From assembly GCF_028368935.1 (NCBI RefSeq), contig NZ_JAQNDK010000002.1, forward strand, positions 2,232,001 to 2,296,000: a DNA stretch of 64,000 bases, read 5' to 3'. A program made the translations under genes and the position numbers. This document shows positions 12,547 to 41,861 of the stretch, piece by piece. How positions within the stretch are numbered: the stretch's first letter is position 1; each line of letters opens with the position of its first letter. Source of the DNA: Sorangium aterium. Its GTDB lineage: Bacteria > Myxococcota_A > Polyangia > Polyangiales > Polyangiaceae. The notes beneath the pieces were generated by a model that was not told the DNA's origin, searched no databases, and saw only the letters and a list, made by a program, of their open reading frames with translations.

Positions 12547-13768
12547 GTGGTGGCACGCCGCACGTCGGACAGATCAGGGCCCTCGGGCGCCGTGGGGGAT
12601 GCGCTGGAAGGGACCCCCTACCGGGCGGTCCGGGTGCTCGGGCGTGGGGGCATGGGGGAGGTCGTCGAGGCGGAGCACCGCGCGCTGCGGAAGCGGGTCG
12701 TCGTGAAGCTCGTCCGCCGCGCGCTGGCGCACGATCCGCGCTTCGCGGACCGGCTGCAGGTGGAGGCGCGGGCGCTGGCGGCGGTGTCGTCGCCGCACGT
12801 GGTGGCGGTGCTCGATCTGGGACAGACGCCGTCGGGGCGCCCGTACTTCGTGATGGAGCGGCTCCGAGGGACGACGCTCGGGGAGGAGCTCGAGCGGCGC
12901 GGTCCGCTGCCGGTGGCCGAGGCGATCGATCTGGTGCGGCAGGTGCTGGCGGGGCTCGCGGCGGCGCACCGGGTGGGGCTTGTCCACCGCGACGTGAAGC
13001 TCGACAACGTGTTCCTGTGCGCGCCGGGGGCGGCGCCGGGCGACGCCCGGGTCGCGAAGGTGCTCGACTTCGGCGTCGCAAAGGTGCTCGACGGCGCGGT
13101 CGCCGACACCGAGGCGGCGCCGGGGGCGGAGCCGTCGCCGTCCTTGCCCGCGCCGGCGTATCCGACCGAGGCCGGGCTGCTGGTCGGGACGCCGCGGACG
13201 GCCTCGCCGGAGCAGGCGCAGTGCCAGCCGGTGGACGCCCGGGCAGATGTGTATGCGGTCGGGCTGCTGATGTATACGCTGGTTGTGGGGCACGGTCCGT
13301 TCGCCCATGTCGAGGACGCGCTGGCGCTGCTGCGCGCGCACGTCGTGGAGCCGCCGGCGCCGCCGTCGCGGTACGCGGCGCAGCGGATCCCGGCGGCGCT
13401 GGACCGGGCGGTGCTGAAGGCGCTGGCGAAGCGGCCGGAGGAGCGGTTCGAGAGCGCCGAGGCGTTCGCGGCGGCGCTGGGGCGGATCGGGGCGGAGCTG
13501 GGGGTGGTGGGAGGGCCGGGCGCGGCCGGGGCGTGGGGAGGTGCGGTGCGGGGGCCGGAGGCGGAGGCAGGGTGGGGGCCGCAGAGCAGGGCGTGGTTCG
13601 AGGCGAGGCCGGAGGGGCGCAGCGGGGCGAGAGCCGGCGGGGGCGTGGCGGTGGAGGCGGGGGGTGGCGCCGGTGGACGCGCGGCTGTTCGCTGGGCTGA
13701 CGCTGGCGAGCACGGTGGTGTTCTCGGCGATCGCGGCGCTGGTGCTGCGCGGGATGGGGGTGTGGTGA
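12547..13768 (+). CDS. Ser/Thr protein kinase with C-terminal membrane helix, frameshifted near its end
   Basis: Start GTG with AGGAG 9 bp upstream. The catalytic domain (about 25-315) has P-loop GRGGMGEV, VVVKLV lysine, HRDVKLDN, LDFGVAK and SPEQ. After a Gly/Ala-rich linker, the frame with typical codon use shifts by +1 at a G6 run (13659-13664). From there the shifted frame encodes a convincing membrane helix (RLFAGLTLASTVVFSAIAAL) and stops with a TGA (13766-13768) that overlaps the next gene's ATG. Read literally, the unshifted frame instead runs on into the second kinase, giving a 1255-residue double kinase. A real +1 indel, a sequencing error in the G-run or slippage could explain it. 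Without the extra base it would be a tail-anchored kinase of about 406 residues. Confidence 0.8.
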
Positions 13769-16314
13769 TGGCGCGGGAGGCGCTGAAGGCCGGGGACGTG
13801 TTCCTGGACTACCGGATCACGGAGGTGATCGACGCGGGTGGGATGGGAGAGGTGTACCGGGCGGTGGAGGACTACTCGGAGGACGTCGTGGCGATCAAGT
13901 GCATGCTGCCCCGGCACCTGAAGAGAGAGGACTTCGCGAGGCGGTTCCGGCAGGAGTGCAAGTTCTATCCGAAGCTGAAGCACCCGAACATCGTGAGGAT
14001 GAGGAAGGCGGGTGTGTCGCCGGATCACGTGGCGTACATCGTGATGGATTACCTCGAGGGGAGGACGCTGAGGAAGCTGCTCAACAAGGCGTACCGGCTG
14101 GACTTCCTGAGCGCGATGCACGTGATGCTGCAGGTGGCGGACGCGATGACGTTCGTGCACTCGAAGGGGATATGGCACCGTGACCTGAAGCCCGAGAACA
14201 TCATGGTCGGGACGAAGGCGGACGCGAAAGGGCACGTGTGGCTCTTGGACTTCGGGATAGCGAAGTTCGCGGACGGCGGGATGAACACCGATGATCTGCC
14301 GGACGTGGGGACGGTGAGGTACATCTCGCCGGAGCAGGTGAAGATGCTTTACACGTCGTCGAGGAAGGCAGAGCGCGTGGAGCGTGCGAGGCCGGATGGG
14401 CGCACGGACATCTACGCGTTCGGTGCGATCTTCTACGAGGTGCTGACGGGGAAGCACCTGTTCCTGGACGACAGCGAGCCAGCGACGGCGGAGGAGACGC
14501 TGACGGGGCACCTGGTCGCGGCGCCGGAGCCGGTGCACGAGATCGTGCCGGATTGCCCCGAGTTCCTGTGGCCCGTGGTGGCGCGGTGCATCGCGATCGA
14601 CCGTGAGGAGCGGTATCCGAGGTTCGACGACGTGGCGCGGGACCTGCGGGGGCTCTTGCGGGACACGGTGCCGGCGGGCCACGTGCTGGCGCAGCGGCTG
14701 GCGCGGGAGCGGATGGAGGCGGAGCGGCAGGCGGCGTTCGCGGGGGTGGCGCTGGAGGACAGCACGCCGGTGGAGGACGAGACGAGCGCAGCGGGCCGGG
14801 CGGGCGAGGAGGAGACGGAGGAGGCGCGGCAGGAGGGTGAGATGGAGCGAGGGAGCGCGGAGGGCGAGAAGCGGGCGCGGCGGGTGGTGCACGGGGAGAC
14901 GGCGCCGCTGGAGCAGTTCGTGGCGCCAGCGAGCGCGCTGCCGTTCGCGCCGTCGTCGCGCGTGCCGCGGGGGCGGGGGGTGGGGCATACGGAGCCGCTG
15001 CCCGCGCTGAAGCCGCTGGAGTCGACCGCGAAGCTCGGCGGGACGTGGGCGGAGCGGATGGCGCAGCGAGCGGGGGCGGCGGCGATGCCGCAGGCGCTGG
15101 CGGAGGTGAGGGCGGGGAGTTGTGCGGGACCGCCGCCGATGCCGCAGTCGCACGGTGGGCCGGTGTCGATGCCGCAGGCGTATGGTGGGCCGGTACCGAT
15201 GCCGCAGTCGTACGGTGGGCCGGCGCCGATGCCGCAGGCGTATGCGGGACCGCCGCCGATGCCGCAGGCGTATGCGGGACCGCCGCCGATGCCGCAGGCG
15301 TATGCGGGACCGCCGCCGATGCCGCAGGCGTATGCGGGACCGCCGCCGATGCCGCAGGCGTATGCGGGACCGCCGCCGATGCCGCAGGCGTATGCGGGAC
15401 CTCCGCCGATGCCGCCGTCGTACGGCGGGCCGGCGTCGCACGCGGAGGCGCAGGGGTACGGTGGACCGCCGCCGTTGCCGGTGATGGAGACGCAGCACGC
15501 CGTGCCATTGAGGGAGGCACGACGAGCAGCAGCGCAGCCGCCGCAGGAGGTGGAGCTTCCGTACGTGACGCCGCAGCTCCTGACGACGGAGGCGTCGGGC
15601 CCGGGAACGGCGCCACCGATCGCGGGGCGGCCAGTGGCGCCGAGCTCGGTGACGGCACCGAGCGCGGGGCCGGCGGAGTCGTTGCGGAAAGAGACGCCGA
15701 TGACGCCGGTGGCGGCGCTGCTGACGCAGCCGCGGCGAGCGCCGAGGGCGTACGTGCTGGCGCCGGTGGTGGCGCTTGCGCTGACGCTGGGAGGCGTGGG
15801 GGCGGTGCTGGGGCTGCGCTCGGCGCGCGACACGGCGCCGGCTCCGGTGACAGGAGAGCCGGCGGCAACGGCGGCGTCGGCGGAGAGCGCGACGGCGGCA
15901 GCGGCAGCGGCGCCGGCCGAGAGCGTGGCGGCGGCAGCGCCACCGTCCGAGGCGAGCGCGACGGCGCCCGCGCCGGAGGCGAGCGCGGCGGCGGCGAGCA
16001 CGGCCGAGGCGGCGGTGAATGCCGGAGCAGCGGAGAAGATGGGGGCGGCAGCGGAGGCCAAGGCGCCTGCTCCCAAGGAGCAAGCGGCGGCAGCGAAGGA
16101 GCAAGCGGTGGCGGCGAAGGCAGAGCCGGCGAAGGCAGCGCCTGTGAAGGCGGCGGCGGGGACGGAGGACGACGAGGACTTCTACCCGATGCCGAAGCGT
16201 CAGAAACCGTCGTTTCTGCGGGTGATCGAGGAGCGGAAGAAGGCGGCGCCTGCGAAGCAACAGGGCGCGAAGCCGGCCGGGCCATGCGCCACGGCGGGGT
16301 GCAGGCCGTTCTAG
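13768..16314 (+). CDS. Membrane-anchored Ser/Thr kinase, copy A
   Basis: 848 residues from the ATG at 13768; copy B starts at the same residue. Catalytic domain (about 10-295): DAGGMGEV, AIKC lysine, HRDLKPEN, LLDFGIAK, SPEQ. A linker (about 300-655) is charged, then Pro-rich with a 10-residue repeat (AGPPPMPQAY). One membrane helix lies at about 658-686. The outside part is Ala/Glu-rich and ends with DDEDFYPMPKRQKPSFL and a CxxxGCRPF tail. The first 434 residues are identical to copy B (22376-25150). All catalytic motifs are present, so it should be active. Its substrates are unknown; the downstream membrane protein and TPR-PEGA protein are obvious candidates. Confidence 0.93.
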   Translation: MAREALKAGDVFLDYRITEVIDAGGMGEVYRAVEDYSEDVVAIKCMLPRHLKREDFARRFRQECKFYPKLKHPNIVRMRKAGVSPDHVAYIVMDYLEGRTLRKLLNKAYRLDFLSAMHVMLQVADAMTFVHSKGIWHRDLKPENIMVGTKADAKGHVWLLDFGIAKFADGGMNTDDLPDVGTVRYISPEQVKMLYTSSRKAERVERARPDGRTDIYAFGAIFYEVLTGKHLFLDDSEPATAEETLTGHLVAAPEPVHEIVPDCPEFLWPVVARCIAIDREERYPRFDDVARDLRGLLRDTVPAGHVLAQRLARERMEAERQAAFAGVALEDSTPVEDETSAAGRAGEEETEEARQEGEMERGSAEGEKRARRVVHGETAPLEQFVAPASALPFAPSSRVPRGRGVGHTEPLPALKPLESTAKLGGTWAERMAQRAGAAAMPQALAEVRAGSCAGPPPMPQSHGGPVSMPQAYGGPVPMPQSYGGPAPMPQAYAGPPPMPQAYAGPPPMPQAYAGPPPMPQAYAGPPPMPQAYAGPPPMPQAYAGPPPMPPSYGGPASHAEAQGYGGPPPLPVMETQHAVPLREARRAAAQPPQEVELPYVTPQLLTTEASGPGTAPPIAGRPVAPSSVTAPSAGPAESLRKETPMTPVAALLTQPRRAPRAYVLAPVVALALTLGGVGAVLGLRSARDTAPAPVTGEPAATAASAESATAAAAAAPAESVAAAAPPSEASATAPAPEASAAAASTAEAAVNAGAAEKMGAAAEAKAPAPKEQAAAAKEQAVAAKAEPAKAAPVKAAAGTEDDEDFYPMPKRQKPSFLRVIEERKKAAPAKQQGAKPAGPCATAGCRPF
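15181..15420 (+). repeat. 30-bp coding minisatellite in kinase A
   Basis: About eight units of a 30-bp repeat encode AGPPPMPQAY and variants (GGPVPMPQSY and similar) in the juxtamembrane linker. Copies in the middle are identical in DNA, indicating recent expansion. Kinase B has different repeats at the same place. Confidence 0.9.
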
Positions 16315-16343
16315 TGTGTGGTCGCTGAGGAGAGAGGTCTTCG

Positions 16344-17536
16344 ATGGGCAGCAACAAGGACAGCGACGACATCCGGCAGTACCTGCCGGACCTCGAGAGC
16401 ATCCGGCGCGAGGCGGATCCCGAGGTTGCGGAGCGGAAGCTGCAGCAGGCGCTGAACAACCCGGAGCTGGACCGGGCGCTGTCGGAGATGCAGCAGCAGA
16501 AGCCGACGGGGCAGCCGCTGTTCCAGTTCCCGGTGGTGCCTGCGCTGGCCAAGGAGCGAACGGGGCCTCCGCCGTATCCGGCGCAAGCGGCGCCGCCGCC
16601 GTATCCGGCACAAGCGACGCCGCCGCCGTATCCGGCACAAGCGACGCCGCCGCCGCTGCCGGCGCAAACGGGGCGGACTCCGCTGCCGGTGCACGCGGTA
16701 CCGCCGCCGTTTCCGGCGAAGGCGCCGCAGCAGGCAGCGCCGCACGGGGCGGTCGTGCAGCAACACGGGGCGGTCGCGCAGCAGCACGGGGCGGTCGTGC
16801 AGCAGCACGGGGCAGTCGCGCAGCAGCACGGGGCGGTCGCGCAGCAGCACGGGGCGGCGGCGCTGCCCGGAGCAGCGCCGCCGCATCAGGGCGCGATGGC
16901 AGCGCAGCGTGCGCCGGTGCAGCAGGTGACGCAGCGTGTGCCGTTATACGGGGGCGCGGCGGCTCCGCAGCACGCGCCGGTGCAGCAGGGCGCGCCGGTG
17001 CAGCCGGGAGCGATGGCGCAGAGCCAGTGGGCGGACCGGGCGCTGCCGCCGATCGACAAGGCGCTGCTGCCGTCGTCGTTGCTGCCGGTGACGCCGCCGC
17101 CGGTGGTGACGCCGAAGCCGCCGCCTGAAGCGCAGGCGGCGGGACGGCGCCGACCTGGATGCCGACGTGGCTCATGGTGGTGCTCGCCGTGCTCGCGGTG
17201 AGCATGCCGTTCGTGCTGGCGACGCTCCTGCGGCGAGAGACGCCGCCGAAAGAGCAGGAGCCGGCGCAGCTGCCGAGCGGGGCGCCAGCGCCGAGCACGC
17301 AGGCGCCGCCGGAGGCCTCGGAGCTGTTGCCGCCGGTGGCGCCGGCACCGCCGGAGGCGGTCGAGCCAAGCCTCGATGACACCGCGTCCGCGAGCCAACC
17401 GCCAGCGCCGCCACCGCCGCCAGGGCCAGTGTCGCCCGTGCCCGCGCGGCCGACGCATGCGGCGCCGCACGTTCCGCAGGCGCCCGTCGCGCCTGCGCCC
17501 ACGGAGCGGCCACAAGACGAAGGATGGATGGAGTGA
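16344..17536 (+). pseudogene. Pro/Gln-rich single-pass membrane protein, copy A (1-bp deletion)
   Basis: The frame starts MGSNKDSDDIRQYLPDLESI as in intact copy B (25175-26350). It runs through PPPYPAQAT repeats and a seven-residue AVAQQHG repeat. At 17154-17155 copy A has CC where copy B has CCC. The frame is lost and stops at 17201, just before the membrane helix. The remainder (17159-17536) is open in the other frame and encodes MPTWLMVVLAVLAVSMPFVL and the Pro-rich tail. As written, the product is soluble, or two pieces result. A sequencing error is the alternative. It lies 29 bp after kinase A, in the same order as in module B. Confidence 0.85.
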
Positions 17537-17553
17537 GACCGCGTGGAGCCATG

Positions 17554-18681
17554 ATGATGACCAGCCGATCGCTAGCTGTAGTGCTGACCGTTGCGACCTT
17601 GATCGCCGACCCCGACGTCGCTGCCGCACAGCCAGCCGCGCCGCCGGCCGCGCCAGGGACGGCGCCTGCCAGCGCCGCCGACGCGGCGAAGCGCGCCGAA
17701 GCGCTCGTCGACAAAGCGAAGTCCCTCTATTTGGAGGGCAAGTACCAAGAAGCCGAGGCCGCGCTGCTCGTGGCCTGGGAGCTGAACCCGACGTTCGACG
17801 TGGCGTACAACCTCGGGAACACGGAATACAAGCTGCAGAAGCACCGTGAAGCAGCGCAGTACCTTTCGTTCGCGCTGAGGAACTGGCCGCTGCTGAAGGC
17901 GGTGGCGAAGCTGAAGCCGAGAGCGGAGCAGTGGCTCGCGGAGTCGCGAGCGCAGGTGGGTGCGCTCAAGGTGTCGGTCACCGTAGCGGGAGCGGAAGTG
18001 CTGGTGGACGGCAAGAGCGTGGGCCGGGCGCCGCTGGAAGGGGAGGTGTTTGTCGACGCCGGCGAGCACCAGGTGGAAGCGAGGCATCTGGACTATGAGC
18101 CGGCGAGCCAGACGGTGGGTGTGGCGAAGGGAGGGACGGCGGAGGTGAAGCTGGCGATAACCCCGGTGAAGGCCGCACCGCAGGCGTTGGCGGGCGTGAA
18201 GACGGAGGGGGGCGCGAGCGCGGCGGGGGCGGGGGCCGGTGCGCCTGTGGCGCAGCAGCCACCCGGGGCGCCGATAGAGCCGCTACCGCCGCCGAAGAGG
18301 AACTGGGTGCCGGTGATCGCGCTGGGCGCGGCGAGCGCGGTGGGGCTCGGCGTGGGGATCGGGCTGACGGTGGCGTCCAGTAACGCGCGGAGCGACGCGG
18401 ATGCGCAGCGCGCTGCGATCCTGTCGCAGGGGCCTGGGTGCGTTCACGCGCCGAGCGATGTTGCGAGTGCGTGCAGCATGTTCGACGAGAGAGCGGGGCG
18501 AGCTGAAACGTTCGGTACCGGAGCCGTCGTGGCCTATGCGGCGTCCGGTGCGCTGGCCGCAGGTGCGTTGGTCTATGCGCTGTGGCCTCGCTCATCTGCA
18601 TCAAGCAACGCGGTGGGTGTGCTGCCGACAGCTTGGGTAGCGCAGGGAGAACGAGGCTTGGGAGTCGTTGGCGTGTGGTGA
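17554..18681 (+). CDS. TPR-PEGA membrane protein, copy A
   Basis: 375 residues. Three ATGs in a row occur at 17551-17559; GGAG is best spaced for the second or third. The signal sequence has a hydrophobic core SLAVVLTVATLIA and ends near AAAQP. Two TPR-like helical repeats follow (about 45-125, with LYLEGKYQEAEAALL and LNPTFDVAYNLGNTEY). A PEGA domain is at about 135-195 (VLVDGKSVGRAPLEGEV). A disordered Gly/Pro linker then leads to two membrane helices (about 252-272 and 325-348). PEGA domains bind surface components and TPRs bind proteins; here both would be outside the cytoplasmic membrane. This is the first of five tandem paralogues. Confidence 0.88.
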   Translation: MMTSRSLAVVLTVATLIADPDVAAAQPAAPPAAPGTAPASAADAAKRAEALVDKAKSLYLEGKYQEAEAALLVAWELNPTFDVAYNLGNTEYKLQKHREAAQYLSFALRNWPLLKAVAKLKPRAEQWLAESRAQVGALKVSVTVAGAEVLVDGKSVGRAPLEGEVFVDAGEHQVEARHLDYEPASQTVGVAKGGTAEVKLAITPVKAAPQALAGVKTEGGASAAGAGAGAPVAQQPPGAPIEPLPPPKRNWVPVIALGAASAVGLGVGIGLTVASSNARSDADAQRAAILSQGPGCVHAPSDVASACSMFDERAGRAETFGTGAVVAYAASGALAAGALVYALWPRSSASSNAVGVLPTAWVAQGERGLGVVGVW

Positions 18682-18709
18682 GCGGCGATGGGAAGGAAAG
18701 GATGCGAAC

Positions 18710-20311
18710 GTGAGAAGACTTAGTGGCATCACGGCTGGCACCCTCTGCGCGGTGCTTGCGGCCGTCGGGTGCGACGCACTGTCGATCGGCCTGACCAGCG
18801 ACCCTGACTACATGCTGAAGGGCCCGGAACACGACTGGCTCCAAGCAGCGGGCGGCGGACCGCCGAACCCCGGATGCGAGGCTGATCCGACGCAGAACGC
18901 GAGCACGGTGACGGATGAGTGCGCGGTGTTCGTGAGCGCGACGGCGGAAGCGGGGGGAGAGGGGACGAAGGCGAGGCCGTACGCGTCGCTCGTGGAGGCG
19001 GTGGCGAACGCGGGGAACAAGCGAGTGCTGGCGTGCACGAGCGGAGCGTTCGCGGAGAGCGTGACGATCGGGGCCAAGGTCGAGGTGATCGGCGGCTTCG
19101 ACTGCGAGGAGGAGTGGGTGTGGAGCGCTGAGGCCCGCAGCGCGATCGAGGGACCCGCGGGCGCGGTGGCGCTCACGATGACGGAAGGCGCAAGCGGGGC
19201 GAAGGTGAAAAGCTTCGCGGTTCGTGCGGCGAGCGCGACGGAGCCGGGCGGGTCGTCAATCGGCGTGGCGGTGGCGGACGTCGATGCGGAACTGGCGCAG
19301 GTGGACGTGACGGCGGGCGATGCGATGGACGGTGCAACCGGCGAGACATCGACGCAAGCGCCGCAGGCGGGAGCCAGCGCGCCGGACACGGAGGAGACGC
19401 GGCCGTCGAAGGCGTGCGATCTGCCGGCAGCCGTGCGAGGCGGCGACCCCGGCGTGACGACGTGCGAGGACGGCGAGACGCGCGGCGGAGCCGGTGGGCT
19501 CGGCGGGATTCCGGGCATGAGCGACGGCAACGGGCAGCCAGGTGAGGATGGTGTGCCGCTGCCGGACCCGAATCCAGAGGAGTACGGGATTGGAGGAGCC
19601 GGACAGACCGGTGGCAATTGCCGGCAGGGAGAGCCCGGCGCGCCTGGAGCTACTGGCGACCCCGGAACCCCCGGTAGCGAGACGACGCTGACACTGGCGG
19701 GCATCGCGGGTGGCGACGGCGGCAACGGCAGAACTGGGACGCGCGGTCAAGGGGGAGGCGCTGGCGGCGGAGCGAAGGCAGGGCTGTTCTGCAAGGCCGG
19801 CCCGAACACCATAGAGGGCCCCGGCGCGAGCGGCGGCGGGGGCGGAGCCGGCGGGTGCGGCGGTAAAGGCGGCGGAGGCGGGAAGGCGGGCGGTTCGAGC
19901 ATCGGGATCCTGAGCCTCGGGACGAAGCTGGTGCTGACCGATGTGACCGTCGCGTTGGGTAAGGCGGGCAAGGGGGGCAACGGAGCCGGCGGACTGAATG
20001 GGGCGAACGGCGGCGCTGGCGCTGCTGGTGGCTCAGCATCGGAGACCCCGCCCTCAATCCCCGGCTGCAAAGGCGGGGATGGCGGCCGAGGCGGAGCCGG
20101 TGGTCCCGGCGCCGGTGGTCGAGGGGGTCATGCCGTGGGCATCGCGTATGCGGTGGCGCCGAGCGCAGCGGTCGCACTGAAGAACTTCACGGAGGGGGTG
20201 GCCGGAGACGGAGGCAGCGCTGGTCCTGGAAGCGCGGAGCCGCACCCACCTGTCAACGGGGTGAGCGGAGCGTGCTGGAACTTTGGTGAAAACGAGGGCT
20301 GCGGGCAGTGA
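18710..20311 (+). CDS. Glycine-rich beta-helix-like lipoprotein, copy A
   Basis: 533 residues from a GTG at 18710, preceded by an AAGGAAAGG tract. The N-terminus RRLSGITAGTLCAVLAAVGC has a lipobox (AAVGC). After PNPGCEADPTQ, a head of about 170 residues has the pattern GTKARPYASLVEAVANA followed by VIGGFDC and turns typical of right-handed beta-helix (DUF1565-like) proteins. The second half is collagen-like, rich in GxGGxGG. The C-terminus ends CWNFGENEGCGQ with paired cysteines. It is probably displayed on the outer membrane. The ligand is unknown. It follows the TPR-PEGA gene by 28 bp, and this pairing is kept in all five copies. Confidence 0.88.
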   Translation: MRRLSGITAGTLCAVLAAVGCDALSIGLTSDPDYMLKGPEHDWLQAAGGGPPNPGCEADPTQNASTVTDECAVFVSATAEAGGEGTKARPYASLVEAVANAGNKRVLACTSGAFAESVTIGAKVEVIGGFDCEEEWVWSAEARSAIEGPAGAVALTMTEGASGAKVKSFAVRAASATEPGGSSIGVAVADVDAELAQVDVTAGDAMDGATGETSTQAPQAGASAPDTEETRPSKACDLPAAVRGGDPGVTTCEDGETRGGAGGLGGIPGMSDGNGQPGEDGVPLPDPNPEEYGIGGAGQTGGNCRQGEPGAPGATGDPGTPGSETTLTLAGIAGGDGGNGRTGTRGQGGGAGGGAKAGLFCKAGPNTIEGPGASGGGGGAGGCGGKGGGGGKAGGSSIGILSLGTKLVLTDVTVALGKAGKGGNGAGGLNGANGGAGAAGGSASETPPSIPGCKGGDGGRGGAGGPGAGGRGGHAVGIAYAVAPSAAVALKNFTEGVAGDGGSAGPGSAEPHPPVNGVSGACWNFGENEGCGQ

Positions 20312-20740: not shown

Positions 20741-20769
20741 TGACAATCCCGCTTGGTTGAGCGTAACTG
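20741..20769 (+). repeat. 29-bp element, copy 2
   Basis: Starts TGACAATCCCG and includes TTGAGCGTAACTG. It lies about 95 bp upstream of the small CxHC protein gene, the same arrangement as copy 9 (39356) and copy 10 (41161). Confidence 0.7.
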
Positions 20770-20863
20770 GGCGAAACGGCATCGATTTCAGAAGAAAGCC
20801 CTTGGGGAGCGCTTCCGTTATCGGCAGAATGCACGACGCGCGATCCCGAGGAGCGTCCTGTCG

Positions 20864-21205
20864 ATGCGCCGGAAGTCCAGCGGAAACGATGTCCCTCCCT
20901 TGGGAAGACGCCCCAGCTTGAGCGCGAGGGTGGAGTGGGAGCGGATGTGGGTACGGCGGCTCGGTCTCGAGGGCGTCGAGTGGGATCCGGAGGAGTCCTG
21001 CGAGCACTGCATCGAGAAGAGAGCGGCTCGGGAAGCAGTGATGGCGGAGCTTGCATCACGGTCGGGGAACCGACCGAAGCGGCGGGTGAGCTATGGGACG
21101 ATCCCATCCAGGACGGGTGGGCGAATGAAGCGGAGCAGGCGCCATGGCAGACGGCTGCTGCTGAAGCTGGTGCGACTGGCGCGGATCGAGCGCGAGGACG
21201 TTTGA
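20864..21205 (+). CDS. Small basic CxHC protein, copy 1
   Basis: 113 residues. GAGGAG lies about 11 bp before the ATG. The three paralogues (this one, 39478-39825 and 41279-41626) share the core EWERMWVRRLGLE, then W-DPE, and C-x-HCI followed by RAAxE. This suggests a short helical or metal-binding module with only one Cys-x-His-Cys cluster. The rest is rich in Arg/Lys and differs between copies, which would suit nucleic-acid or acidic-protein binding. I know no family. In copies 1 and 2 it directly precedes the PP2C-like gene, so the two probably act together. Confidence 0.7.
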   Translation: MRRKSSGNDVPPLGRRPSLSARVEWERMWVRRLGLEGVEWDPEESCEHCIEKRAAREAVMAELASRSGNRPKRRVSYGTIPSRTGGRMKRSRRHGRRLLLKLVRLARIEREDV

Positions 21206-21388
21206 GCGCTTGATGGAGAGGCCCCGTCACGAGCTGCCGGTTCGAGCGAGCAACCGTTGACGGCCCAGGCGCGCTGAGGGCGCACGGCGGCGGCGCTGTG
21301 TGCTGGGCGACAGAGTAGAAACCGGCGCACCGCGGGTGTGGTGCGCCCTGAGTCGGCTCGTCCGTGCGACGAGCGTGCGAGGTGGACG

Positions 21389-22315: not shown

Positions 22316-22375
22316 TCAGCTCTCCCTTTTTCTTCGTGTTCTTCTCATTATCTCGCTCGTCCTGGGGGTCCTGTG

Positions 22376-33708: not shown

Positions 33709-35292
33709 ATGAAAACGAAAGCAAGGCGCTGGGTTGCAGCGAATGTTGTGCTTGTCCTCGCTGCGAGCGGTTGTGACGTCGTGTGGAACGACGTGTCAGG
33801 GGATTGTGAGCTGATGCTCACCTGCGCGCACTTCCTGCCGACCGGCAGTGGCGGCGGACCGCCGAACCCCGGATGCGAGGCTGATCCGACGCAGGACGCG
33901 AGCACGGTGACGGACGAGTGCGCAGTGTTCGCGAGCGCGACGGCGGAGCCGGGGGGAGATGGGACGAAGGCGAGGCCGTACGTGTCTCTCGAGGAGGCAG
34001 TAGCGAAAGCGAACGGCAAGCGGGTGCTGGCGTGCGCGAGCGAGCCGTTCGCGGAGAGCGTGACGATCGAGGCTGGCGTCGAGGTGATCGGGGGCTTCGA
34101 CTGCGAGGCGGAGTGGACGTGGAGCAATGAGGCGCGGAGCGCAATCGAGGCGCCTGCGAACCGGATCGCGCTCACGGTGTCCGAGGCCGCGAGCGGGGCG
34201 AAGGTGCGGAGCTTCGCGATCCGCGCGGCGAGCGCGACGGAGCGGGGCGGATCGTCGATCGGCGTGGCAGTGGCGGACGTCGAGGCGGAGCTTGCGCAGG
34301 TGGACGTGACGGCCGGCGATGGGATGGCCGGCGCGAACGGCGAAACGCCGGAGGAGGCGCCGCAAGGGGGAGCCAGCGCGCCGGCGGACGTGTCCAATGC
34401 GTGCCCATTCGTCGTCTATGGTGGTGATCCCGGTGTGACGACGTGTGGCGACGGCGAGACGCGCGGTGGCGCTGGCGGACTCGGCGGGACTACGGGTACC
34501 GACGAGGGCAATGGGCAGAAGGGTGCGGACGGTGCGCCGTTGCCAGAGCCGAACCCGAGCAACAAAGGCATCGGAGGCACGGGGCAGAATGCAGCCGATG
34601 AATGCAATGCCGGTGCAAACGGTAAGAGCGGCGATCCCGGCAGATCCGGCGAAGTGGACGGCTCGACGCAGCTTACATTGGAGGGGATCGCAGGTGGCGA
34701 CGGCCGAAGCGGCATGACGGGGACGCGAGGTCAAGGGGGAGGAGGCGGCGGAGGCGCGAAAGCAGGGCGGTTCTGTGGACCCTCAGCGGACCCGATCAAC
34801 GGTCCAGGCGCGAGCGGCGGGGGTGGCGGAGCCGGTGGCTGTGGCGGGAAGGGGGGCAGCGGAGGAAAGGCCGGAGGATCGAGCATCGGGATCGTGAGCC
34901 TGGGGACGAAGCTGGTGCTGACGGACGTGACCGTTGCGGTGGGCGAGGCGGGCAAGGGGGGGAATGGCGCGGCAGGTCAACTCGGCGGGTCGGGTGGAAC
35001 TGGTGCTGCCGGCGGCACGGCGCCTGCGGCGCCTGCAATCCCCGGATGCAAAGGCGGGGATGGTGGCCGAGGCGGAGCTGGAGGTCCTGGCGCCGGCGGC
35101 CGAGGGGGCCACGCAGTGGGCATTGCCTACGCTGCAGCGGCGAGCGCCACGCTGGAGCTGAAGGAGTTCATGGCGGGCACGGCCGGAGATGGAGGCAGTG
35201 CTGGGCCTGGTGGATCGGAGCAGAGTACCGGTGCCCAGGGCGCGAGCGGTATTTGCTGGAACTTTGCGACGAACGAGAGCTGCGCGCAGTGA
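33709..35292 (+). CDS. Glycine-rich beta-helix-like lipoprotein, copy D
   Basis: 527 residues. The ATG at 33709 has AGAGGA at 6 bp and gives an ideal lipoprotein signal (MKTKARRWVAANVVLVLAAS then GC). An in-frame ATG at 33682 overlaps the TPR-PEGA gene and is the alternative. The beta-helix-like head is very close to copy C (for example the shared SEPFAESV). The Gly-rich body and the tail CWNFATNESCAQ follow. The 3' flank is a close copy of the flank of lipoprotein A, which helps order the duplications. Confidence 0.9.
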   Translation: MKTKARRWVAANVVLVLAASGCDVVWNDVSGDCELMLTCAHFLPTGSGGGPPNPGCEADPTQDASTVTDECAVFASATAEPGGDGTKARPYVSLEEAVAKANGKRVLACASEPFAESVTIEAGVEVIGGFDCEAEWTWSNEARSAIEAPANRIALTVSEAASGAKVRSFAIRAASATERGGSSIGVAVADVEAELAQVDVTAGDGMAGANGETPEEAPQGGASAPADVSNACPFVVYGGDPGVTTCGDGETRGGAGGLGGTTGTDEGNGQKGADGAPLPEPNPSNKGIGGTGQNAADECNAGANGKSGDPGRSGEVDGSTQLTLEGIAGGDGRSGMTGTRGQGGGGGGGAKAGRFCGPSADPINGPGASGGGGGAGGCGGKGGSGGKAGGSSIGIVSLGTKLVLTDVTVAVGEAGKGGNGAAGQLGGSGGTGAAGGTAPAAPAIPGCKGGDGGRGGAGGPGAGGRGGHAVGIAYAAAASATLELKEFMAGTAGDGGSAGPGGSEQSTGAQGASGICWNFATNESCAQ

Positions 35293-35971: not shown

Positions 35972-36973
35972 ATGATTGGACGCACCTCGCGCCGGGGTGA
36001 TAGGGACTCTTTTGTCGCGGAGACGCGGCACGGTGGGCTTCCCGGCGCTGACAACTTCACCACCCCCGAGTGGACTGCTCAAGGCGCGGGCGGAGGGACC
36101 GTTGATCTGCTGACTTCTTCTGCGTCGGGCCGCGAGAGCGGATGCGATCCGACGGTCGCTGAAGGGAGCCCGGCAGCAGATCGCTTTTGCGCGGCGGGAG
36201 AGCTTCGAGGCGTGCCCGTGAGGGGATGGACGCGCCGCTGCGCTGGACCCCGAACCGCCGTTGTAAACGAGACCACTCCCGTCCCGCGGGTAGCGCGGGA
36301 CATGGGAGGGGCGGGCGGCGCGCAGGCGCGAAGCGCCGAGCACCGACCGGGGGTGGGCATCCTCGTGCTCATTGCTGTCGTTGTCAGCACCCCCGCGCGA
36401 ACTGCGTGGTGCGAGCAGCGGGTGCGGGGGGCTATGGGAGAGACGGTCGACGCGGCGCTGGCGAAGAGCGAGGAGTCGACGGCGGCGGGAGCGACGACGG
36501 AGGGGGGTGGGAGCACGACGGGTGCGGGGGTCGTTGGGCTCGTGGCGGGGCCGCCGGCGGTGCCGATGGAACCGCGACCGCTGCCGGACAAGAGGAACTG
36601 GGTGCCGGTGATCACGCTGGGGGCCGCAAGCGCGGTGTGGCTCGGCGTGGGGATCGGGATGACGGTGGCGTCGAACAACGCGAGCGAGGATGGGCGCGCG
36701 CAAGCCAATGCAATCCTCAACGCCGGCGGTGGCTGCCCGGATGTGCCGCGCAGATACCAACAGGCGTGCTCTGAGCTTCGGACAACGGCCTTCCGCGTCG
36801 ACACATTCGGGCGTGCAGCGACCGTGGCGTATACAGCATCGGGCGTGCTGGCCATCGCAGCCGCGACCTATGCGCTGTGGCCGCGTTCGGGGACCAAGGC
36901 GTCAGGCAAGGTGCGTGCTCTACCCGAAGCGCGCATCGGTTACGGGGGGATTGCGGTGCAGTGCGTATGGTGA
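35972..36973 (+). CDS. Shortened paralogue E: N-terminal block and two membrane helices, TPR and PEGA deleted
   Basis: 333 residues. The N-terminal block (1-80), the element-derived stretch and a hydrophobic segment (ILVLIAVVVSTPARTAWC) match C and D. The sequence then jumps to the Gly/Pro linker (TTEGGGSTTGAG) and the two membrane helices (NWVPVITLGAASAVWLGVGI; VAYTASGVLAIAAATYALWP). About 130 residues holding TPR and PEGA are missing, with the frame kept. It may be a non-functional derivative or a membrane-only variant. It still precedes a full lipoprotein gene. Confidence 0.75.
   Translation: MIGRTSRRGDRDSFVAETRHGGLPGADNFTTPEWTAQGAGGGTVDLLTSSASGRESGCDPTVAEGSPAADRFCAAGELRGVPVRGWTRRCAGPRTAVVNETTPVPRVARDMGGAGGAQARSAEHRPGVGILVLIAVVVSTPARTAWCEQRVRGAMGETVDAALAKSEESTAAGATTEGGGSTTGAGVVGLVAGPPAVPMEPRPLPDKRNWVPVITLGAASAVWLGVGIGMTVASNNASEDGRAQANAILNAGGGCPDVPRRYQQACSELRTTAFRVDTFGRAATVAYTASGVLAIAAATYALWPRSGTKASGKVRALPEARIGYGGIAVQCVW
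36271..36359 (+). repeat. Palindromic element of about 90 bp, copy 4
   Basis: Slightly diverged (CCACTCCC at the start), with GGCGCGAAGCGCC as in copy 1. Confidence 0.8.
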
Positions 36974-36993: not shown

Positions 36994-38583
36994 ATGAAGA
37001 GGAATCGAGTTCGCGGGCAGCTGTGTTCCTTGGGGCTGGTCGTTTGCACCGTCGGTTGCGATACGGTGTGGAGCAACGTCGCGGAGGATTGCGAGGTTAC
37101 CCTGTCGTGCGACCATCATCGCGGGCTGTGGGATGGCACAGGCGGCGGTGTGCCGAACCCCGAGTGTGAGGCCGATCCGACGAAGGACGCGAGCACGGTG
37201 ACGGACGAGTGCGCGGTGTTCGCGAGCGCAAACGCGGCACCTGGCGGGGACGGGACAAAGGAGAAGCCGTACGCTTCGCTCGCGGAGGCGATCGCGAACG
37301 CCCACGGCAAGCGGGTGCTGGCGTGCATGAGCGGAGCGTTCGCGGAGAGCGTGACGATCGAGGCGGGCGTGGAGGTGATCGGCGGCTTCGACTGTGACGC
37401 GGCGTGGATGTGGAGCGAAGCGGCGCGGAGCGCGATCGAGGGGCCGCCGGATCAGATCGCGCTCACGCTGGGGGAGGGAGCGAACGGGGCAAAGGTGCGG
37501 AGCTTCGCGGTGCGCGCCGCGAGCACGACGAAGGCAGGCGGGTCGTCGATCGGGGTGGCGGTCGCGGACATCGGGGCGGAACTGGCGCAGGTGGAGGTGA
37601 CCGCAAGCGACGGGATGGATGGCGCGGACGGCAAGATACCGATCGAACGGCCGTACACAGGGGCGAGCGGGTCGACGAATACGGCGTCGTTCGCGTGTAT
37701 TATGGATGTGTCTGTCTACGGCGGCGACCCCGGCGTCACCCTCTGCGAAGACGGCGAGACCCGCGGTGGCGAAGGCGGCCTCGGCGGCATCCCAGGCATG
37801 GGTGACGACAACGGCCGGCCCGGCCAGGCCGGAACCCCCCTGCCCGACCCAATCCTCCCCGACAGCCCGGGTCTCGGCGGCATGGGCCAAACGGAGACGA
37901 GCGAATGCGAACAGGGCCAACCCGGCCGCGATGGCGCCTCCGACGCCCACGGCCGCGCCGGTCGCGCCACCACCCTCGCCCTCACGGGCATCACCGGCGG
38001 CGACGGCGCCCCCGGCATCACCGGCAAGAAAGGTCAAGGAGGCGGTGGAGGCGGCGGCGCGAAGGCGGGGTATTATTGCGGAAACCCGAGGAGCCCCGTG
38101 GAGGCTTCTGGCGCCAGCGGCGGTGGCGGCGGAGCCGGCGGCTGCGGAGGCAAAGGAGGAGGCGGCGGCCAAGCCGGCGGATCGAGCATCGGCATCCTCA
38201 GTCTGGGAACGAAGCTCGAACTGACCGAGGTGACCGTCGCCGTGGGCAAGGCGGGCAACGGAGGAAAGGGCGGACTCGGACGACCTGGCGCCAGCGGGGG
38301 CAGTGGCGGGACCGCAGGTGACGCTGGCCCTCTTGGTGGCTCCGGATGTGATGGTGGTCGTGGCGGCACGGGCGGCCGCGGCGGTCTTGGCGGCGGCGGT
38401 CGAGGCGGCCATGCGGTGGGAATCGCCTACGCCGCTGCGCCGAGCGCGGCGGTGGAGCTGAAGGACTTCAAAAAGGGGGCGGCGGGCGACGGCGGGCAGC
38501 TCGGGTTCGGCGACAACGCCGGCATGCCCGGTGTGAGCGCCGCGTGCTGGAGCTTCGGTGGAAACGAGAGCTGCGGGCAGTGA
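36994..38583 (+). CDS. Glycine-rich beta-helix-like lipoprotein, copy E (mosaic)
   Basis: 529 residues. The ATG has GAGG 6 bp upstream and gives signal MKRNRVRGQLCSLGLVVCTV followed by GC. Head, Gly-rich body and tail CWSFGGNESCGQ are as in the others. From about 37725 to 38020 the codon choice changes abruptly to C-ending codons (GGC, CCC, CTC), unlike the G-ending style of the rest of the array. It returns afterwards. This suggests that a segment was replaced from another source. The protein plan is unaffected. Confidence 0.88.
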   Translation: MKRNRVRGQLCSLGLVVCTVGCDTVWSNVAEDCEVTLSCDHHRGLWDGTGGGVPNPECEADPTKDASTVTDECAVFASANAAPGGDGTKEKPYASLAEAIANAHGKRVLACMSGAFAESVTIEAGVEVIGGFDCDAAWMWSEAARSAIEGPPDQIALTLGEGANGAKVRSFAVRAASTTKAGGSSIGVAVADIGAELAQVEVTASDGMDGADGKIPIERPYTGASGSTNTASFACIMDVSVYGGDPGVTLCEDGETRGGEGGLGGIPGMGDDNGRPGQAGTPLPDPILPDSPGLGGMGQTETSECEQGQPGRDGASDAHGRAGRATTLALTGITGGDGAPGITGKKGQGGGGGGGAKAGYYCGNPRSPVEASGASGGGGGAGGCGGKGGGGGQAGGSSIGILSLGTKLELTEVTVAVGKAGNGGKGGLGRPGASGGSGGTAGDAGPLGGSGCDGGRGGTGGRGGLGGGGRGGHAVGIAYAAAPSAAVELKDFKKGAAGDGGQLGFGDNAGMPGVSAACWSFGGNESCGQ

Positions 38584-38693: not shown

Positions 38694-38990
38694 ATGAGTG
38701 GACGTGCCCCGTGCTGCGGTGGTAGGGAGTGGTCCGTCGCGGAGACGCGACACGGTGGGCTGCCAGGCGCTTACAACCGCACCACCATCGCGTGGATTGC
38801 CCAGGGCGCGGGCGGAGGGACCGTTGATCTGCTGAAACCTTCTGCGTCGGGCCGCGAGCGTGGATGTTATCCAACGGTCGCTGAAGGCAGTCCGTCAGTA
38901 GATCACTTTCTTGCGGCGGGAGAGCTGCGATGTGTAGCGCCGGGGCAGAGGCGTGATGGCGCTGGGCTCCGAACCGCGATCGCCGTCGAG
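38694..38990 (+). pseudogene. Remnant of the N-terminal block (fourth copy)
   Basis: It has the same ribosome site and start region, and the frame reads SVAETRHGGLPGAYN, AGGGTVDLLKPSASG and CYPTVAEGSP as in C, D and E. After a partial palindromic element (38990 onward) the TPR-PEGA part is missing and a lipoprotein fragment follows. It looks like a unit collapsed by deletion. Confidence 0.65.
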
Positions 38991-39355: not shown

Positions 39356-39384
39356 TGACGACCCGGCCTGGCTGCGCGTAAGTA
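39356..39384 (+). repeat. 29-bp element, copy 9 (most diverged)
   Basis: Starts TGACGACCCGG and contains GCGCGTAAG. It aligns without gaps to copy 2 and lies at the same distance from a CxHC protein gene. Confidence 0.6.
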
Positions 39385-39477
39385 GTCGAAAGATATCGAT
39401 TTCTGGACGAAAACGCTTGGCGAGCTCTTTCGTGGCCGGCAGTATGCGCGCCGCTCGATCCAAGGAGCGCCCTGCCG

Positions 39478-39825
39478 ATGCGCCGGAATTCCAGTGGAAA
39501 CTATGTCCCTCTCTCCGGAAGACGCCCCAGCCCGAGCGGGATGGGGGAGTGGGAGCGGATGTGGGTGCGCAGGCTGGGTCTCGAGGATGTGGAGTGGGAC
39601 CCGGAGCTGCACTGCGAGCACTGCATCGCGAAGCGAGCGGCCTGGGAAGCGGTGATGGAGGAACTTGCATCACGGTCGGGGAACCGACCGAAGCTGCGGC
39701 TGAGCCCTGGATGGGAGAAGATCCCGCCGAGGGCGGGCAGGCGAAGCAGGCGGAGCAAGGGCCGCTGCAGGCGGCTGCTGCTGAAGATGGTGCGACTGGC
39801 GCGTCTCGTGCGCGAGGATTTTTGA
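39478..39825 (+). CDS. Small basic CxHC protein, copy 2
   Basis: 115 residues; AAGGAG lies about 10 bp before the ATG. The core EWERMWVRRLGLEDVEWDPE and CEHCIAKRAA is as in copy 1, as is the Arg/Lys-rich tail (RRLLLKMVRLARLVREDF). It precedes the second PP2C-like gene by 184 bp, as in the first pair. No family is recognised. Confidence 0.72.
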   Translation: MRRNSSGNYVPLSGRRPSPSGMGEWERMWVRRLGLEDVEWDPELHCEHCIAKRAAWEAVMEELASRSGNRPKLRLSPGWEKIPPRAGRRSRRSKGRCRRLLLKMVRLARLVREDF

Positions 39826-40009
39826 GCGCTTGAGCGAAAGGTCCCGTCGCGAGCTCCCAGCTCGGGCGAGCAGCCGCTGACGGCGTGACCTCGCCGAGGG
39901 CGCACGGCGGCGGCGCGGCGCGCCGGGTGACAGAACAGGAGACCGGCGCACCGCGAGCGTGGTGCGCGCTGACTCGGCTCGTCCTTGCGGCGAGCGTGCG
40001 AGGTGGAGG

Positions 40010-40774
40010 ATGGTGCGTCCAACGCTCGCCATCGAGGCAGGGGCGGATGCCCTTGTGTCGAGGCGTCGTGCGAGCAACGAGGAGCGCTCTGGTGAGTTGC
40101 CTTGCCTGGGCCTCTTCCTGGTCACGGGCCGGCTTGGCGGAGAGATCGTCTCCCGCACGGCGATCGAGATGGTGCATCCCCCTGTCGAGGCAGGCAGCGT
40201 GGACGACCCTGGCGCTGGTGAGATGATCGCGCCGCAGTGTCGGGACGAAGTGCGGCTCACGATGAGCCCGCGTCGAACAGGCCGCGCCGAGGACGAGCGT
40301 CTGCAGCCGGGACCGAGCGGCGTGCAGGTGACCTTCGCCGGTGTACTGCTCGCACCAGGGGCGGCGTACATCGTCTACGCAGGCGATATGCACATCTACC
40401 GGTTCCGTGGGGGGAAGCTGGAGGCGCGACCGCGTGATGTTGCGGCGGTCGACGGCGGGGCGTTGGACGGATCCATCCCGCTGGACGCCCCAGCCATGCT
40501 GGTGCAACACGCCGGCGCGGCCGCACGCGCGCTCGGCTGCGACGCAGCGGTGGAGATGACGGCCCAGGTCGAGAACACGGCGCCGGGCGACATTTTCCTC
40601 GCGTGCTCGGGGGACCTCTGGGGCTCGGTGTCCGAGCAGCGCATCGCCGGCATCCTCGCAGCGCACCGCGAGCTGCGGCTGGCGGCGAGCCTGCTGATGG
40701 ACTGCGCTCATGAGAACGGCGAGGTCGAGCAGGCAATGTGCGTCCTGGCCCGTGTGGCAGGGTCTGTGGGTTGA
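40010..40774 (+). CDS. PP2C-like protein lacking metal ligands, copy 2
   Basis: 254 residues, same length and start context (GAGGTGGAGG before ATG) as copy 1. The PP2C-like segments are RRRASNEE, LFLVTGRLGG, AYIVYAGDMHIYRF, PGDIFLACSGDLWGSV and QAMCVLARV. One acid is nearer canonical here (AGDMH for GDSR), but the DG of the first motif and the final DN are still missing, so full activity remains unlikely. The leader hairpin of copy 1 is conserved (CGCACC/GGTGCG, 39947-39966). Confidence 0.75.
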   Translation: MVRPTLAIEAGADALVSRRRASNEERSGELPCLGLFLVTGRLGGEIVSRTAIEMVHPPVEAGSVDDPGAGEMIAPQCRDEVRLTMSPRRTGRAEDERLQPGPSGVQVTFAGVLLAPGAAYIVYAGDMHIYRFRGGKLEARPRDVAAVDGGALDGSIPLDAPAMLVQHAGAAARALGCDAAVEMTAQVENTAPGDIFLACSGDLWGSVSEQRIAGILAAHRELRLAASLLMDCAHENGEVEQAMCVLARVAGSVG

Positions 40775-40830: not shown

Positions 40831-40920
40831 GACCCCTCCCGTCCCGCGCGGAGCGCGGGACTTGGGAGGGGCGGACCGCGCGCAGGCCCGCAGGGCCGAG
40901 CACGGGCCGGGGGTGGGCAG
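40831..40920 (+). repeat. Palindromic element of about 90 bp, copy 5
   Basis: Close to copies 1 and 3. It is followed directly by a Gly-rich gene fragment rather than by a hydrophobic segment. Confidence 0.85.
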
Positions 40921-41189: not shown

Positions 41190-41278
41190 GGTAAAACGGT
41201 AACGATGATTCGAAGAAACCCCTTGGCGAGCTCATTCGTTGCCGGCAGAATGGGCACCGCCCGAATTCAAGGAGCCCC

Positions 41279-41626
41279 ATGCCGAAGCGCCGAAGGTCCC
41301 GCGGAGACGACCCCCCTCCCTCTGGTAAGCGCCCCAGCTTGAGCAAGATGGGGGAGTGGGAGCGGATGTGGGTACGGAGGCTGGGTCTCGAAGACATCGA
41401 CTGGGATCCCGAGAAGTATTGTATGCACTGCATCGCGGAGCGGGCGGCTCGCGAAGAGGCGGCGGCGGAGGAGCTCGCGCCGCCGTCAGGGCCCAGACTG
41501 CCCGCGTCGCAGAGCCTCTTGTGGGCCAAGAACCCACGCCCGGTAGGTGGTCCCAAAGAGCGCAGCAAGCGCCGCCCCAGACTGATGCTCGTGCCCTCGG
41601 TACACCGCAAAGGCGAGGATTCTTGA
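41279..41626 (+). CDS. Small basic CxHC protein, copy 3
   Basis: 115 residues with AAGGAG before the ATG. It shares EWERMWVRRLGLEDIDWDPE and CMHCIAERAAREE; the C-terminal half is unlike copies 1 and 2 (no LLKMVRLAR segment). The expected PP2C-like partner downstream is truncated (41697-41861), so this pair is broken. Confidence 0.68.
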   Translation: MPKRRRSRGDDPPPSGKRPSLSKMGEWERMWVRRLGLEDIDWDPEKYCMHCIAERAAREEAAAEELAPPSGPRLPASQSLLWAKNPRPVGGPKERSKRRPRLMLVPSVHRKGEDS

Positions 41627-41696
41627 GCGAGAGGCCCCTTCGCGAGGGGGCTGGATCGAGCGAGTCGACCAGAGGGTATGGGGGACGCTGGCTCTG

Positions 41697-41861
41697 ATGT
41701 GCTCTCCGGGAATCTGTCGTGTTGTGTCGGAACACCGCATCTCCGGCATCCTCGCTGCGCATCGCGAGTCGCTGCGCGCGGCGCGCCACCTGTGCTGCGC
41801 GCGGCGTGCCATGTGCGCGAGTCGCGCCTTCGGATGGATGGACTGCGCTCATGAGCTCACG
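41697..41861 (+). pseudogene. Truncated third PP2C-like copy
   Basis: The frame reads CSPGICRVVSEHRISGILAA then HRESLRAA and, after an Ala/Arg/Cys-rich interruption, WMDCAHE. These match CSGDLWGSVSEQRIAGILAA and LMDCAHEN of copy 2. The N-terminal two thirds and the C-terminus are missing. It marks the right edge of the duplicated locus. Confidence 0.75.

What the first reader, a model, noticed from the sequence alone, without database searches (positions are those of the whole stretch)
12547..41861. A segmentally duplicated kinase / TPR-PEGA / glycine-rich lipoprotein / pseudophosphatase locus
Seen: two kinase modules, five tandem pairs of TPR-PEGA protein and glycine-rich lipoprotein, three CxHC genes and three PP2C-like genes (one truncated), all on one strand over about 29 kb with repeated intergenic DNA and many relics. 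The gene order within units is kept while linkers and glycine-rich loops vary. Known: PEGA and TPR domains bind envelope components or proteins; bacterial Ser/Thr kinases often act on membrane partners. Inferred: a surface-display and signalling system that diversifies by tandem duplication and deletion. I know no described system with this composition.
Basis: partly seen in the sequence, partly recalled or inferred. Interest (0 to 1): 0.88.

Follow-up and report, generated by a model that had tools for sequence, protein, structure and literature searches.

The report
Sorangium kinase–sigma–surface lipoprotein array
A soil bacterium of the genus Sorangium carries a genus-wide gene cluster in which membrane protein kinases, a phosphatase-like protein and a gene-switch (sigma) factor sit beside a copy-number-variable tandem row of envelope scaffold and glycine-rich lipoprotein genes, with a previously unclassified structured RNA between the repeats; it looks like a real but undescribed signalling and cell-surface system.

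Summary
On one strand (12.5-41.8 kb) lie a single kinase A, two kinase B/membrane-protein modules, five TPR-PEGA/glycine-rich lipoprotein pairs (the fifth TPR-PEGA has lost its TPR and PEGA domains), three CxHC genes and three PP2C-like genes (one a fragment). The locus is no private relic heap. It sits between the same neighbours (etf genes and a sigma-factor operon; nadB) in four other Sorangium genomes, with 2-5 pairs. The same families recur together at six or more paralogous Sorangium loci. The PP2Cs keep all motifs at paralogous loci and lost the metal-binding residues only here. Between the pairs lies an unclassified 172-nt RNA-like element (8 helices, compensatory changes, strand bias). 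It occurs 20 times in six Sorangium genomes, every located copy beside these genes. An 89-nt hairpin repeat also lies there and is strand-neutral. Lipoprotein copies evolve under purifying selection, with no sign of diversifying selection. Best reading: a kinase/phosphatase-regulated alternative sigma system whose output is a birth-and-death array of envelope lipoproteins. Output, signal and sigma target are inferred.

The parts
11235..11924 (-). sigma70-family factor (SIG, 229 aa), divergent from KinA
   Evidence: Pfam Sigma70_r2 2e-7 and Sigma70_r4 1.1e-6; NCBIfam sigma70-ECF superfamily above cut-off, FliA/WhiG-like region 2; syntenic in G001, G003, G004
11921..12247 (-). UP108, 108-aa protein of unknown family whose end overlaps the sigma gene start
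   Evidence: no Pfam or NCBIfam match; homologues next to the sigma gene at L040, L043, L054, L086, L128
12547..13770 (+). KinA, Ser/Thr kinase; C-terminal TM part is in another frame here, producing the 1255-aa fused ORF
   Evidence: Pfam Pkinase, two domains in the fused ORF; relatives' KinA ends ...LVLRGLGVW* overlapping the KinB start
13768..16314 (+). KinB copy 1: Ser/Thr kinase, Pro/Gly-rich linker, TM, extracytoplasmic tail
16344..17533 (+). GSN copy 1, frameshifted membrane protein
   Evidence: 91.6% identical to copy 2 up to aa 241, then continued in another frame
17524..18681 (+). TPR-PEGA 1
   Evidence: PEGA 3.1e-8, TPR
18668..20311 (+). GLY 1, glycine-rich lipoprotein
20744..21205 (+). 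CxHC gene 1 (stop-to-stop frame; likely start near 20864)
   Evidence: 64% and 50% identical to copies 2 and 3
21338..22153 (+). PP2C-like 1, metal-binding motifs lost (pseudophosphatase)
   Evidence: NCBIfam Stp1 1.7e-13 but far below cut-off; alignment with active paralogues
22228..22316 (.). 89-nt double-hairpin element (hp)
22376..25150 (+). KinB copy 2
   Evidence: Pkinase 3.3e-42; one TM at aa 723-741
25175..26350 (+). GSN copy 2, single-pass membrane protein
   Evidence: no family match; TM at aa 271-289
26347..27462 (+). TPR-PEGA 2
   Evidence: PEGA 1.4e-11; AF2: TPR/PEGA part mostly pLDDT about 90, C-terminal half low
27462..29063 (+). GLY 2
   Evidence: AF2 model pLDDT 76, N-terminal beta-helix
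29217..29388 (+). R1, 172-nt structured RNA-like element
29477..29565 (.). hp element; its 3' end contains the in-frame GTG of TPR-PEGA 3
29558..30577 (+). TPR-PEGA 3
   Evidence: 80% identical to TPR-PEGA 2
30571..32172 (+). GLY 3
32322..32493 (+). R1 element
32582..32670 (.). hp element
32663..33688 (+). TPR-PEGA 4
33709..35292 (+). GLY 4
36012..36183 (+). R1 element
36272..36360 (.). hp element
36353..36973 (+). TPR-PEGA 5, internally deleted (no TPR, no PEGA)
   Evidence: HMM positions 183-373 only; no Pfam match
36994..38583 (+). GLY 5
38734..38905 (+). R1 element, with a compensated hairpin pair (C-G to U-A)
39382..39825 (+). CxHC gene 2
39959..40774 (+). PP2C-like 2 (pseudophosphatase)
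40832..40920 (.). hp element
41195..41626 (+). CxHC gene 3
41661..41786 (+). PP2C-like 3, fragment
   Evidence: HMM 204-245/267
42068..43774 (+). nadB-like gene (FAD-dependent oxidase by inspection), right border conserved in relatives
   Evidence: 91-96% identical in four other Sorangium genomes at the same place

Best explanation
This is the expanded nadB-linked copy of a multi-copy Sorangium signalling-plus-envelope system. Shown: transmembrane Ser/Thr kinases, a sigma70-family factor with a small co-encoded protein (UP108), PP2C-type proteins, CxHC proteins and TPR-PEGA/glycine-rich lipoprotein pairs are inherited together, at this conserved place and at paralogous loci. Inferred: an extracytoplasmic cue is read through the kinases' envelope-facing tails. 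Phosphorylation, opposed by PP2C at the paralogous loci, frees or activates the sigma factor, possibly through UP108. The sigma factor drives the TPR-PEGA/lipoprotein units. TPR-PEGA proteins act as membrane-anchored periplasmic scaffolds for the lipoproteins. Each lipoprotein is a right-handed beta-helix followed by a packed glycine-rich domain, suited to binding polysaccharide or other surface material. Tandem duplication and deletion of TPR-PEGA/lipoprotein units between repeated intergenic elements sets the number of variants. In this copy the PP2C has become a pseudophosphatase, so it would bind or tether phosphorylated partners rather than dephosphorylate them.
For: Conserved locus: same borders and gene order in G001, G003, G004 and (right half) G005. 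G004 is So0157-2 (14,782,125 bp, and the abstract of PMC3696898). Full or nearly full set at paralogous loci L037, L039/L040, L042, L043, L054, L086 and L128. Searches started from other members give the same linkage: the 14 top PP2C matches (at least 62% identity to the query) are all in loci that carry GLY or TPR-PEGA; all 12 CxHC matches lie in this locus, its orthologues, loci of the family, or one relic. Of 90 complete GLY genes outside the window, 52 have TPR-PEGA directly upstream and 19 another GLY. Constraint: GLY dN/dS 0.23-0.37, sigma 0.29-0.37, active PP2C 0.17-0.32, pseudo-PP2C 0.37-0.48. Fold: beta-helix neighbours are pectin methylesterases, lacto-N-biosidase and phage tailspikes.
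Against: No expression, phosphorylation or localisation data. No promoter motif for the sigma factor was demonstrated. TPR-PEGA-GLY-GLY triplets without kinase or sigma exist at about a dozen loci of the same genome, so the lipoprotein pair can work without this signalling set. Several members here are damaged (KinA and GSN1 frameshifts, TPR 5, PP2C 3). CxHC genes show weak constraint (dN/dS 0.39-0.78). Asp at lipobox +2 in four of five copies may mean inner-membrane retention. No structure match reached E 0.001 in the PDB.
Confidence: 0.5

Rival explanations
1. The TPR-PEGA/GLY pair is an autonomous envelope lipoprotein unit (scaffold plus cargo) that has merely been recruited next to many different regulators. 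Kinases, sigma and PP2C here are neighbours regulating it only loosely, and the array is simply a copy-number expansion.
For: TPR-PEGA-GLY-GLY triplets without kinase or sigma at about a dozen loci in G000 and pairs in other genera; GLY family matched in 171 of 284 sampled Myxococcota genomes, a composition-prone model.
Against: At the GLY subfamily closest to this one, kinase, sigma, UP108, CxHC and PP2C recur together at six or more paralogous loci and at this locus in several genomes; operon-like overlaps (UP108/sigma, KinA/KinB).
Confidence: 0.3
2. A decaying, selfish-like tandem array: recombination between repeats keeps making partial copies and most are non-functional relics.
For: KinA and GSN1 frameshifts, TPR 5 deletion, PP2C 3 fragment, lost PP2C motifs, G003 PP2C fragmented, G004 GLY frames broken.
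Against: All five GLY frames are open and under purifying selection; sigma and KinB constrained; locus kept in all five Sorangium genomes where it could be examined; R1 elements keep compensatory pairing.
Confidence: 0.15
3. An antigenic-variation-like surface system in which silent copies recombine into an expressed one.
For: Tandem copies with conserved flanks and repeat elements; recent duplications in some strains (GLY G003_1/2, G003_7.2 a-d).
Against: Each copy has its own complete gene and upstream region; no single expression site seen; no positive selection signal; several copies are old, e.g. TPR w4 groups with G003_2 rather than with its neighbours.
Confidence: 0.05

Closest known systems
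ECF sigma factors activated by a co-encoded Ser/Thr kinase (ECF43: EcfP/PknT of Vibrio parahaemolyticus, EcfK/PknS of Xanthomonas citri; PMC8999054)
   Same: A kinase gene next to a two-domain sigma factor gene, no recognised anti-sigma gene.
   Different: Sigma region 2 here is FliA/SigB-like and the protein has a co-encoded UP108 and a PP2C; group membership was not assigned; output is a lipoprotein array.
Co-organised kinase and PP2C genes of Sorangium cellulosum (phosphatome study, PMC2887360)
   Same: That study reports six co-organisations of kinase and PP2C genes in S. cellulosum and expansion of PP2C by duplication.
   Different: The passages read mention neither the TPR-PEGA/GLY/CxHC/sigma content nor the nadB-linked pseudophosphatase.
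PE_PGRS proteins of Mycobacterium tuberculosis (PMC7550000)
   Same: Large multi-copy family of glycine-rich envelope proteins with GGX repeats proposed to form polyglycine II sandwiches.
   Different: No PE domain; here a lipobox and an N-terminal beta-helix; different phylum; no homology shown.
SigB/Rsb partner-switching modules (named in PMC2887360)
   Same: Serine/threonine phosphorylation opposed by a PP2C-superfamily phosphatase controls an alternative sigma factor.
   Different: No anti-sigma kinase or STAS-domain protein found here; the kinase is a Hanks-type transmembrane kinase.

Membership tests
Hanks-type Ser/Thr kinase (Pfam PF00069) | Kinase domain above curated cut-off with HRD and DFG motifs | tested here: met
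   258 bits over two domains, and 145 bits for KinB2 (cut-off 31.7); HRDVK/HRDLK and DFG present in the translations
PP2C phosphatase | Metal-coordinating Asp motifs (R..NED, VADG, GDSR, SDGL, GG.DN) | tested here: not met
   Window copies 1 and 2 and the G004 and G005 nadB-locus copies lack most of them; paralogues elsewhere keep all. No Pfam PP2C match in the window, PP2C_2 at 9.5e-15 and 6.7e-16 in paralogues
sigma70 family | Regions 2 and 4 above cut-off | tested here: met
   Pfam 31.1/24 and 28.5/24.1 bits; TIGR02937 above cut-off
Kinase-activated ECF group (ECF43) | ECF43 profile and loss of the DAED motif in region 2.2 | not tested
   ECF group models not available; region 2 looks FliA-like
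PEGA-domain protein | PEGA above cut-off | tested here: met
   44.5 and 33.8 bits versus 20.8 for TPR-PEGA 2 and 1; copy 5 fails
Described RNA family (Rfam 15) | Any family near its gathering score for R1 or hp | tested here: not met
   Only one chance match elsewhere in 32 kb at E up to 0.5; none relevant in L127
PE_PGRS | N-terminal PE domain | tested here: not met
   No Pfam match for GLY
Right-handed parallel beta-helix proteins | Beta-helix fold | tested here: inconclusive
   AF2 residues 50-180 pLDDT about 90; Foldseek probability up to 1.00 to beta-helix enzymes, but no PDB E-value below 0.01
Integron attC or REP-type mobile hairpin (for hp) | Mobilising integrase or transposase, target-site evidence | not tested
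   hp structure is strand-neutral; no mobilising enzyme was searched for

The most novel reading that the evidence does not exclude
Sorangium has an undescribed class of kinase/PP2C-governed alternative-sigma systems whose output units (TPR-PEGA plus beta-helix/polyglycine lipoprotein) carry a dedicated cis-acting structured RNA (R1) controlling each unit, and spread and turn over through a DNA-hairpin repeat (hp), giving a signal-controlled, modular surface-protein repertoire.
Probability: 0.25. Interest if true: 0.8.

Novelty: new variant of a known kind. Interest (0 to 1): 0.62.

Why it matters
Sorangium genomes hold record numbers of kinases and PP2C phosphatases whose outputs are mostly unknown. 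This locus and its paralogues give one concrete, testable wiring: kinase and phosphatase to sigma factor to a defined set of envelope lipoproteins. They also offer a natural contrast between active PP2C paralogues and a pseudophosphatase in the nadB-linked copy. The R1 element is a candidate new RNA family tied to one gene system.

Tried and rejected
Diversifying selection on GLY loops: not seen. Leader as an N-terminal extension of TPR-PEGA: the frame is open in most copies but broken in a G004 and a G005 copy; conservation follows RNA pairing instead, so rejected. R1 or hp as known Rfam families: no match. R1 stability: folding energy of one copy is not better than shuffles (z +0.70); the case rests on covariation and G-U strand bias only. 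hp as an RNA: only 2 G-U cells among 930 and equal pairing on both strands, so a DNA-level hairpin is as likely. Defence system: kinase matches to PADLOC kinases are the generic domain; no other member matches. GLY tree: mostly unresolved and affected by long branches. TPR-PEGA AF2 model: only the TPR/PEGA part is confident.
Full report
WHERE IT IS. The window is contig 2 of a 13.47-Mb, 7-contig genome. The genus is Sorangium: G003, placed in the same genus, has a contig of exactly the length of S. cellulosum So ceGT47 NZ_CP012670.1. G004 is 14,782,125 bp, the published size of So0157-2 (PMC3696898 abstract).

WHAT IS THERE. Going right from 11.2 kb, a divergent pair comes first: a sigma70-family factor (Pfam regions 2 and 4; FliA-like region 2) and an overlapping 108-aa protein, UP108, without family. 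On the + strand follow KinA, KinB1, GSN1, TPR-PEGA 1, GLY 1, CxHC 1, PP2C 1, KinB2, GSN2, four more TPR-PEGA/GLY pairs, CxHC 2, PP2C 2, CxHC 3, a PP2C fragment, then the nadB-like gene. KinA and KinB1 read as one 1255-aa ORF only because of a frameshift near a G-run; relatives have two genes with overlapping stop and start. GSN1 is also frameshifted. These may be mutations or sequencing errors. KinB1 and KinB2 are almost identical (dS 0.04, dN 0.00), so that duplication, or a gene conversion, is recent.

THE LOCUS IS CONSERVED. The same left flank (etf genes, sigma, UP108) and right flank (nadB-like, EF-G-like) bracket KinA-KinB-GSN-(TPR-PEGA-GLY)n-CxHC-PP2C in G003 (3 pairs), G004 (3 pairs plus fragments) and G001 (2 pairs and remnants, no PP2C). 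The G005 contig carries the right half with at least 2 pairs. Trees of GLY and TPR-PEGA are poorly resolved but show both old copies shared between strains (TPR w4 with G003_2, 100/100; GLY w2 with G005_1, 95/92) and recent within-strain duplications. Copy number therefore turns over.

THE SYSTEM RECURS. Profiles made from the window families were run over more than 60 fetched loci. The set kinase, UP108, sigma, TPR-PEGA, GLY, CxHC, PP2C appears whole or nearly whole at paralogous loci: L054 (So ceGT47, 5.4 Mb), L086 and L043 (G004), L039/L040, L042 and L128 (G003), and L037/L038 (the window's own genome, contig 5). The loci were chosen by GLY, so I tested linkage from other members. All 14 top PP2C matches with at least 62% identity to the L054 phosphatase fall in loci with GLY or TPR-PEGA. 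All CxHC matches fall in this locus, its orthologues, paralogous loci or one relic. Elsewhere in Sorangium and other Polyangiales genera the smaller unit TPR-PEGA-GLY or TPR-PEGA-GLY-GLY occurs without kinase. The GLY profile matches 171 of 284 sampled Myxococcota genomes, a figure to be read with care because the model is glycine-rich.

PSEUDOPHOSPHATASE. At paralogous loci the PP2C has every canonical motif. At the nadB locus of G000 (two copies), G004 and G005 the metal-binding residues are mostly replaced; G003 has a broken copy. The frame stays open with dN/dS 0.37-0.48, against 0.17-0.32 for the active clade: relaxed but not neutral. Loss of catalysis is inferred from sequence.

PROTEINS AND TOPOLOGY. 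KinB has one TM segment before a ~180-aa tail, GSN one TM, TPR-PEGA a signal peptide and two C-terminal TM segments by a simple hydropathy scan. GLY has a lipobox by inspection, then a predicted beta-helix (residues ~50-180, pLDDT ~90). A glycine-rich remainder of mixed confidence follows, with few assigned strands; that is compatible with, but no proof of, polyglycine II packing. Fold neighbours of the first part are beta-helix enzymes and tailspikes, no PDB match below E 0.01. Among the five copies no 30-codon window has pN/pS above 1.

THE INTERGENIC ELEMENTS. Between GLY and the next gene lies a 172-nt element, R1, conserved 80-96% across most copies in strains and loci, in places better than the proteins beside it. 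An alignment of 16 copies, including two that are about 67% identical, gives an 8-helix model with 99.0% of cells paired and six pairs changed on both sides. No shuffle in 500 matched either value, and slid structures fail. The model was derived from the same alignment, which favours it somewhat. G-U pairs are frequent (80 cells), so the + strand pairs in 775 of 783 cells and the complementary strand in only 696. That supports an RNA read in the direction of the genes. Rfam has no match. A covariance model finds 20 copies in six Sorangium genomes and none in 115 other Polyangiales genomes with strict filters. Every copy that I located lies after a GLY gene or after a PP2C of this system. One copy's folding energy is unremarkable.

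A second, 89-nt element (hp) is a double hairpin with 42 compensated cells. It is equally paired on both strands and also occurs at unrelated tandemly duplicated two-gene units (L119, L121-L123, L125). It looks like a dispersed DNA hairpin repeat that could seed recombination. In TPR-PEGA 3-5 its 3' end supplies an in-frame GTG (position by inspection).

HOW IT MOST LIKELY WORKS. Shown: linkage, conservation, copy-number change, constraint, loss of PP2C motifs here, and the two elements. Inferred: the kinases sense an envelope state, phosphorylation opposed by PP2C controls sigma (perhaps through UP108), sigma drives the array, TPR-PEGA anchors or presents GLY, and GLY contacts surface or prey polysaccharide. 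Kinase-activated sigma factors are known (PMC8999054), and kinase/PP2C co-organisation in S. cellulosum was noted before (PMC2887360). In the papers searched I found no description of this composition.

VERDICT. New variant of a known kind, interest 0.62.

Noticed in passing
window 29217-29388, 32322-32493, 36012-36183, 38734-38905; G000:C5:956217-956389: R1: 172-nt unclassified structured RNA-like element, Sorangium-only in the genomes searched, 20 copies in six genomes, beside this gene system.
   Followed up: yes
window 22228-22316, 29477-29565, 32582-32670, 36272-36360, 40832-40920; L119, L121-L123, L125: hp: 89-nt double-hairpin repeat, strand-neutral, also next to tandem duplicates of an unrelated two-gene unit (large ORF plus ~350-aa ORF ending GLMS); a possible recombination-seeding repeat.
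   Followed up: partly
G000, about a dozen loci (L058, L060-L062, L064-L070, L073, L074): TPR-PEGA-GLY-GLY triplets in many places of the same genome, mostly without kinase or sigma; GLY has 26-50 matches in each of the well-assembled Sorangium genomes.
   Followed up: partly
L075:9244-9945 (G000:C1 about 2.922 Mb): Relic of the system: CxHC frame with stops, PP2C C-terminal fragment and one hp copy.
   Followed up: partly
window 13650-13700 and 17084-17156: Frameshifts in KinA and GSN1; could be real or sequencing errors.
   Followed up: no
window 61831-63780 (-): Separate Ser/Thr kinase with an FHA domain, not part of this locus.
   Followed up: no
window 11235-11924 versus L037, L040, L043, L054, L086: Short sigma factors with FliA/SigB-like region 2 and a detectable region 4 but no region 3 match, with UP108 or a kinase nearby; may deserve their own group.
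   Followed up: partly
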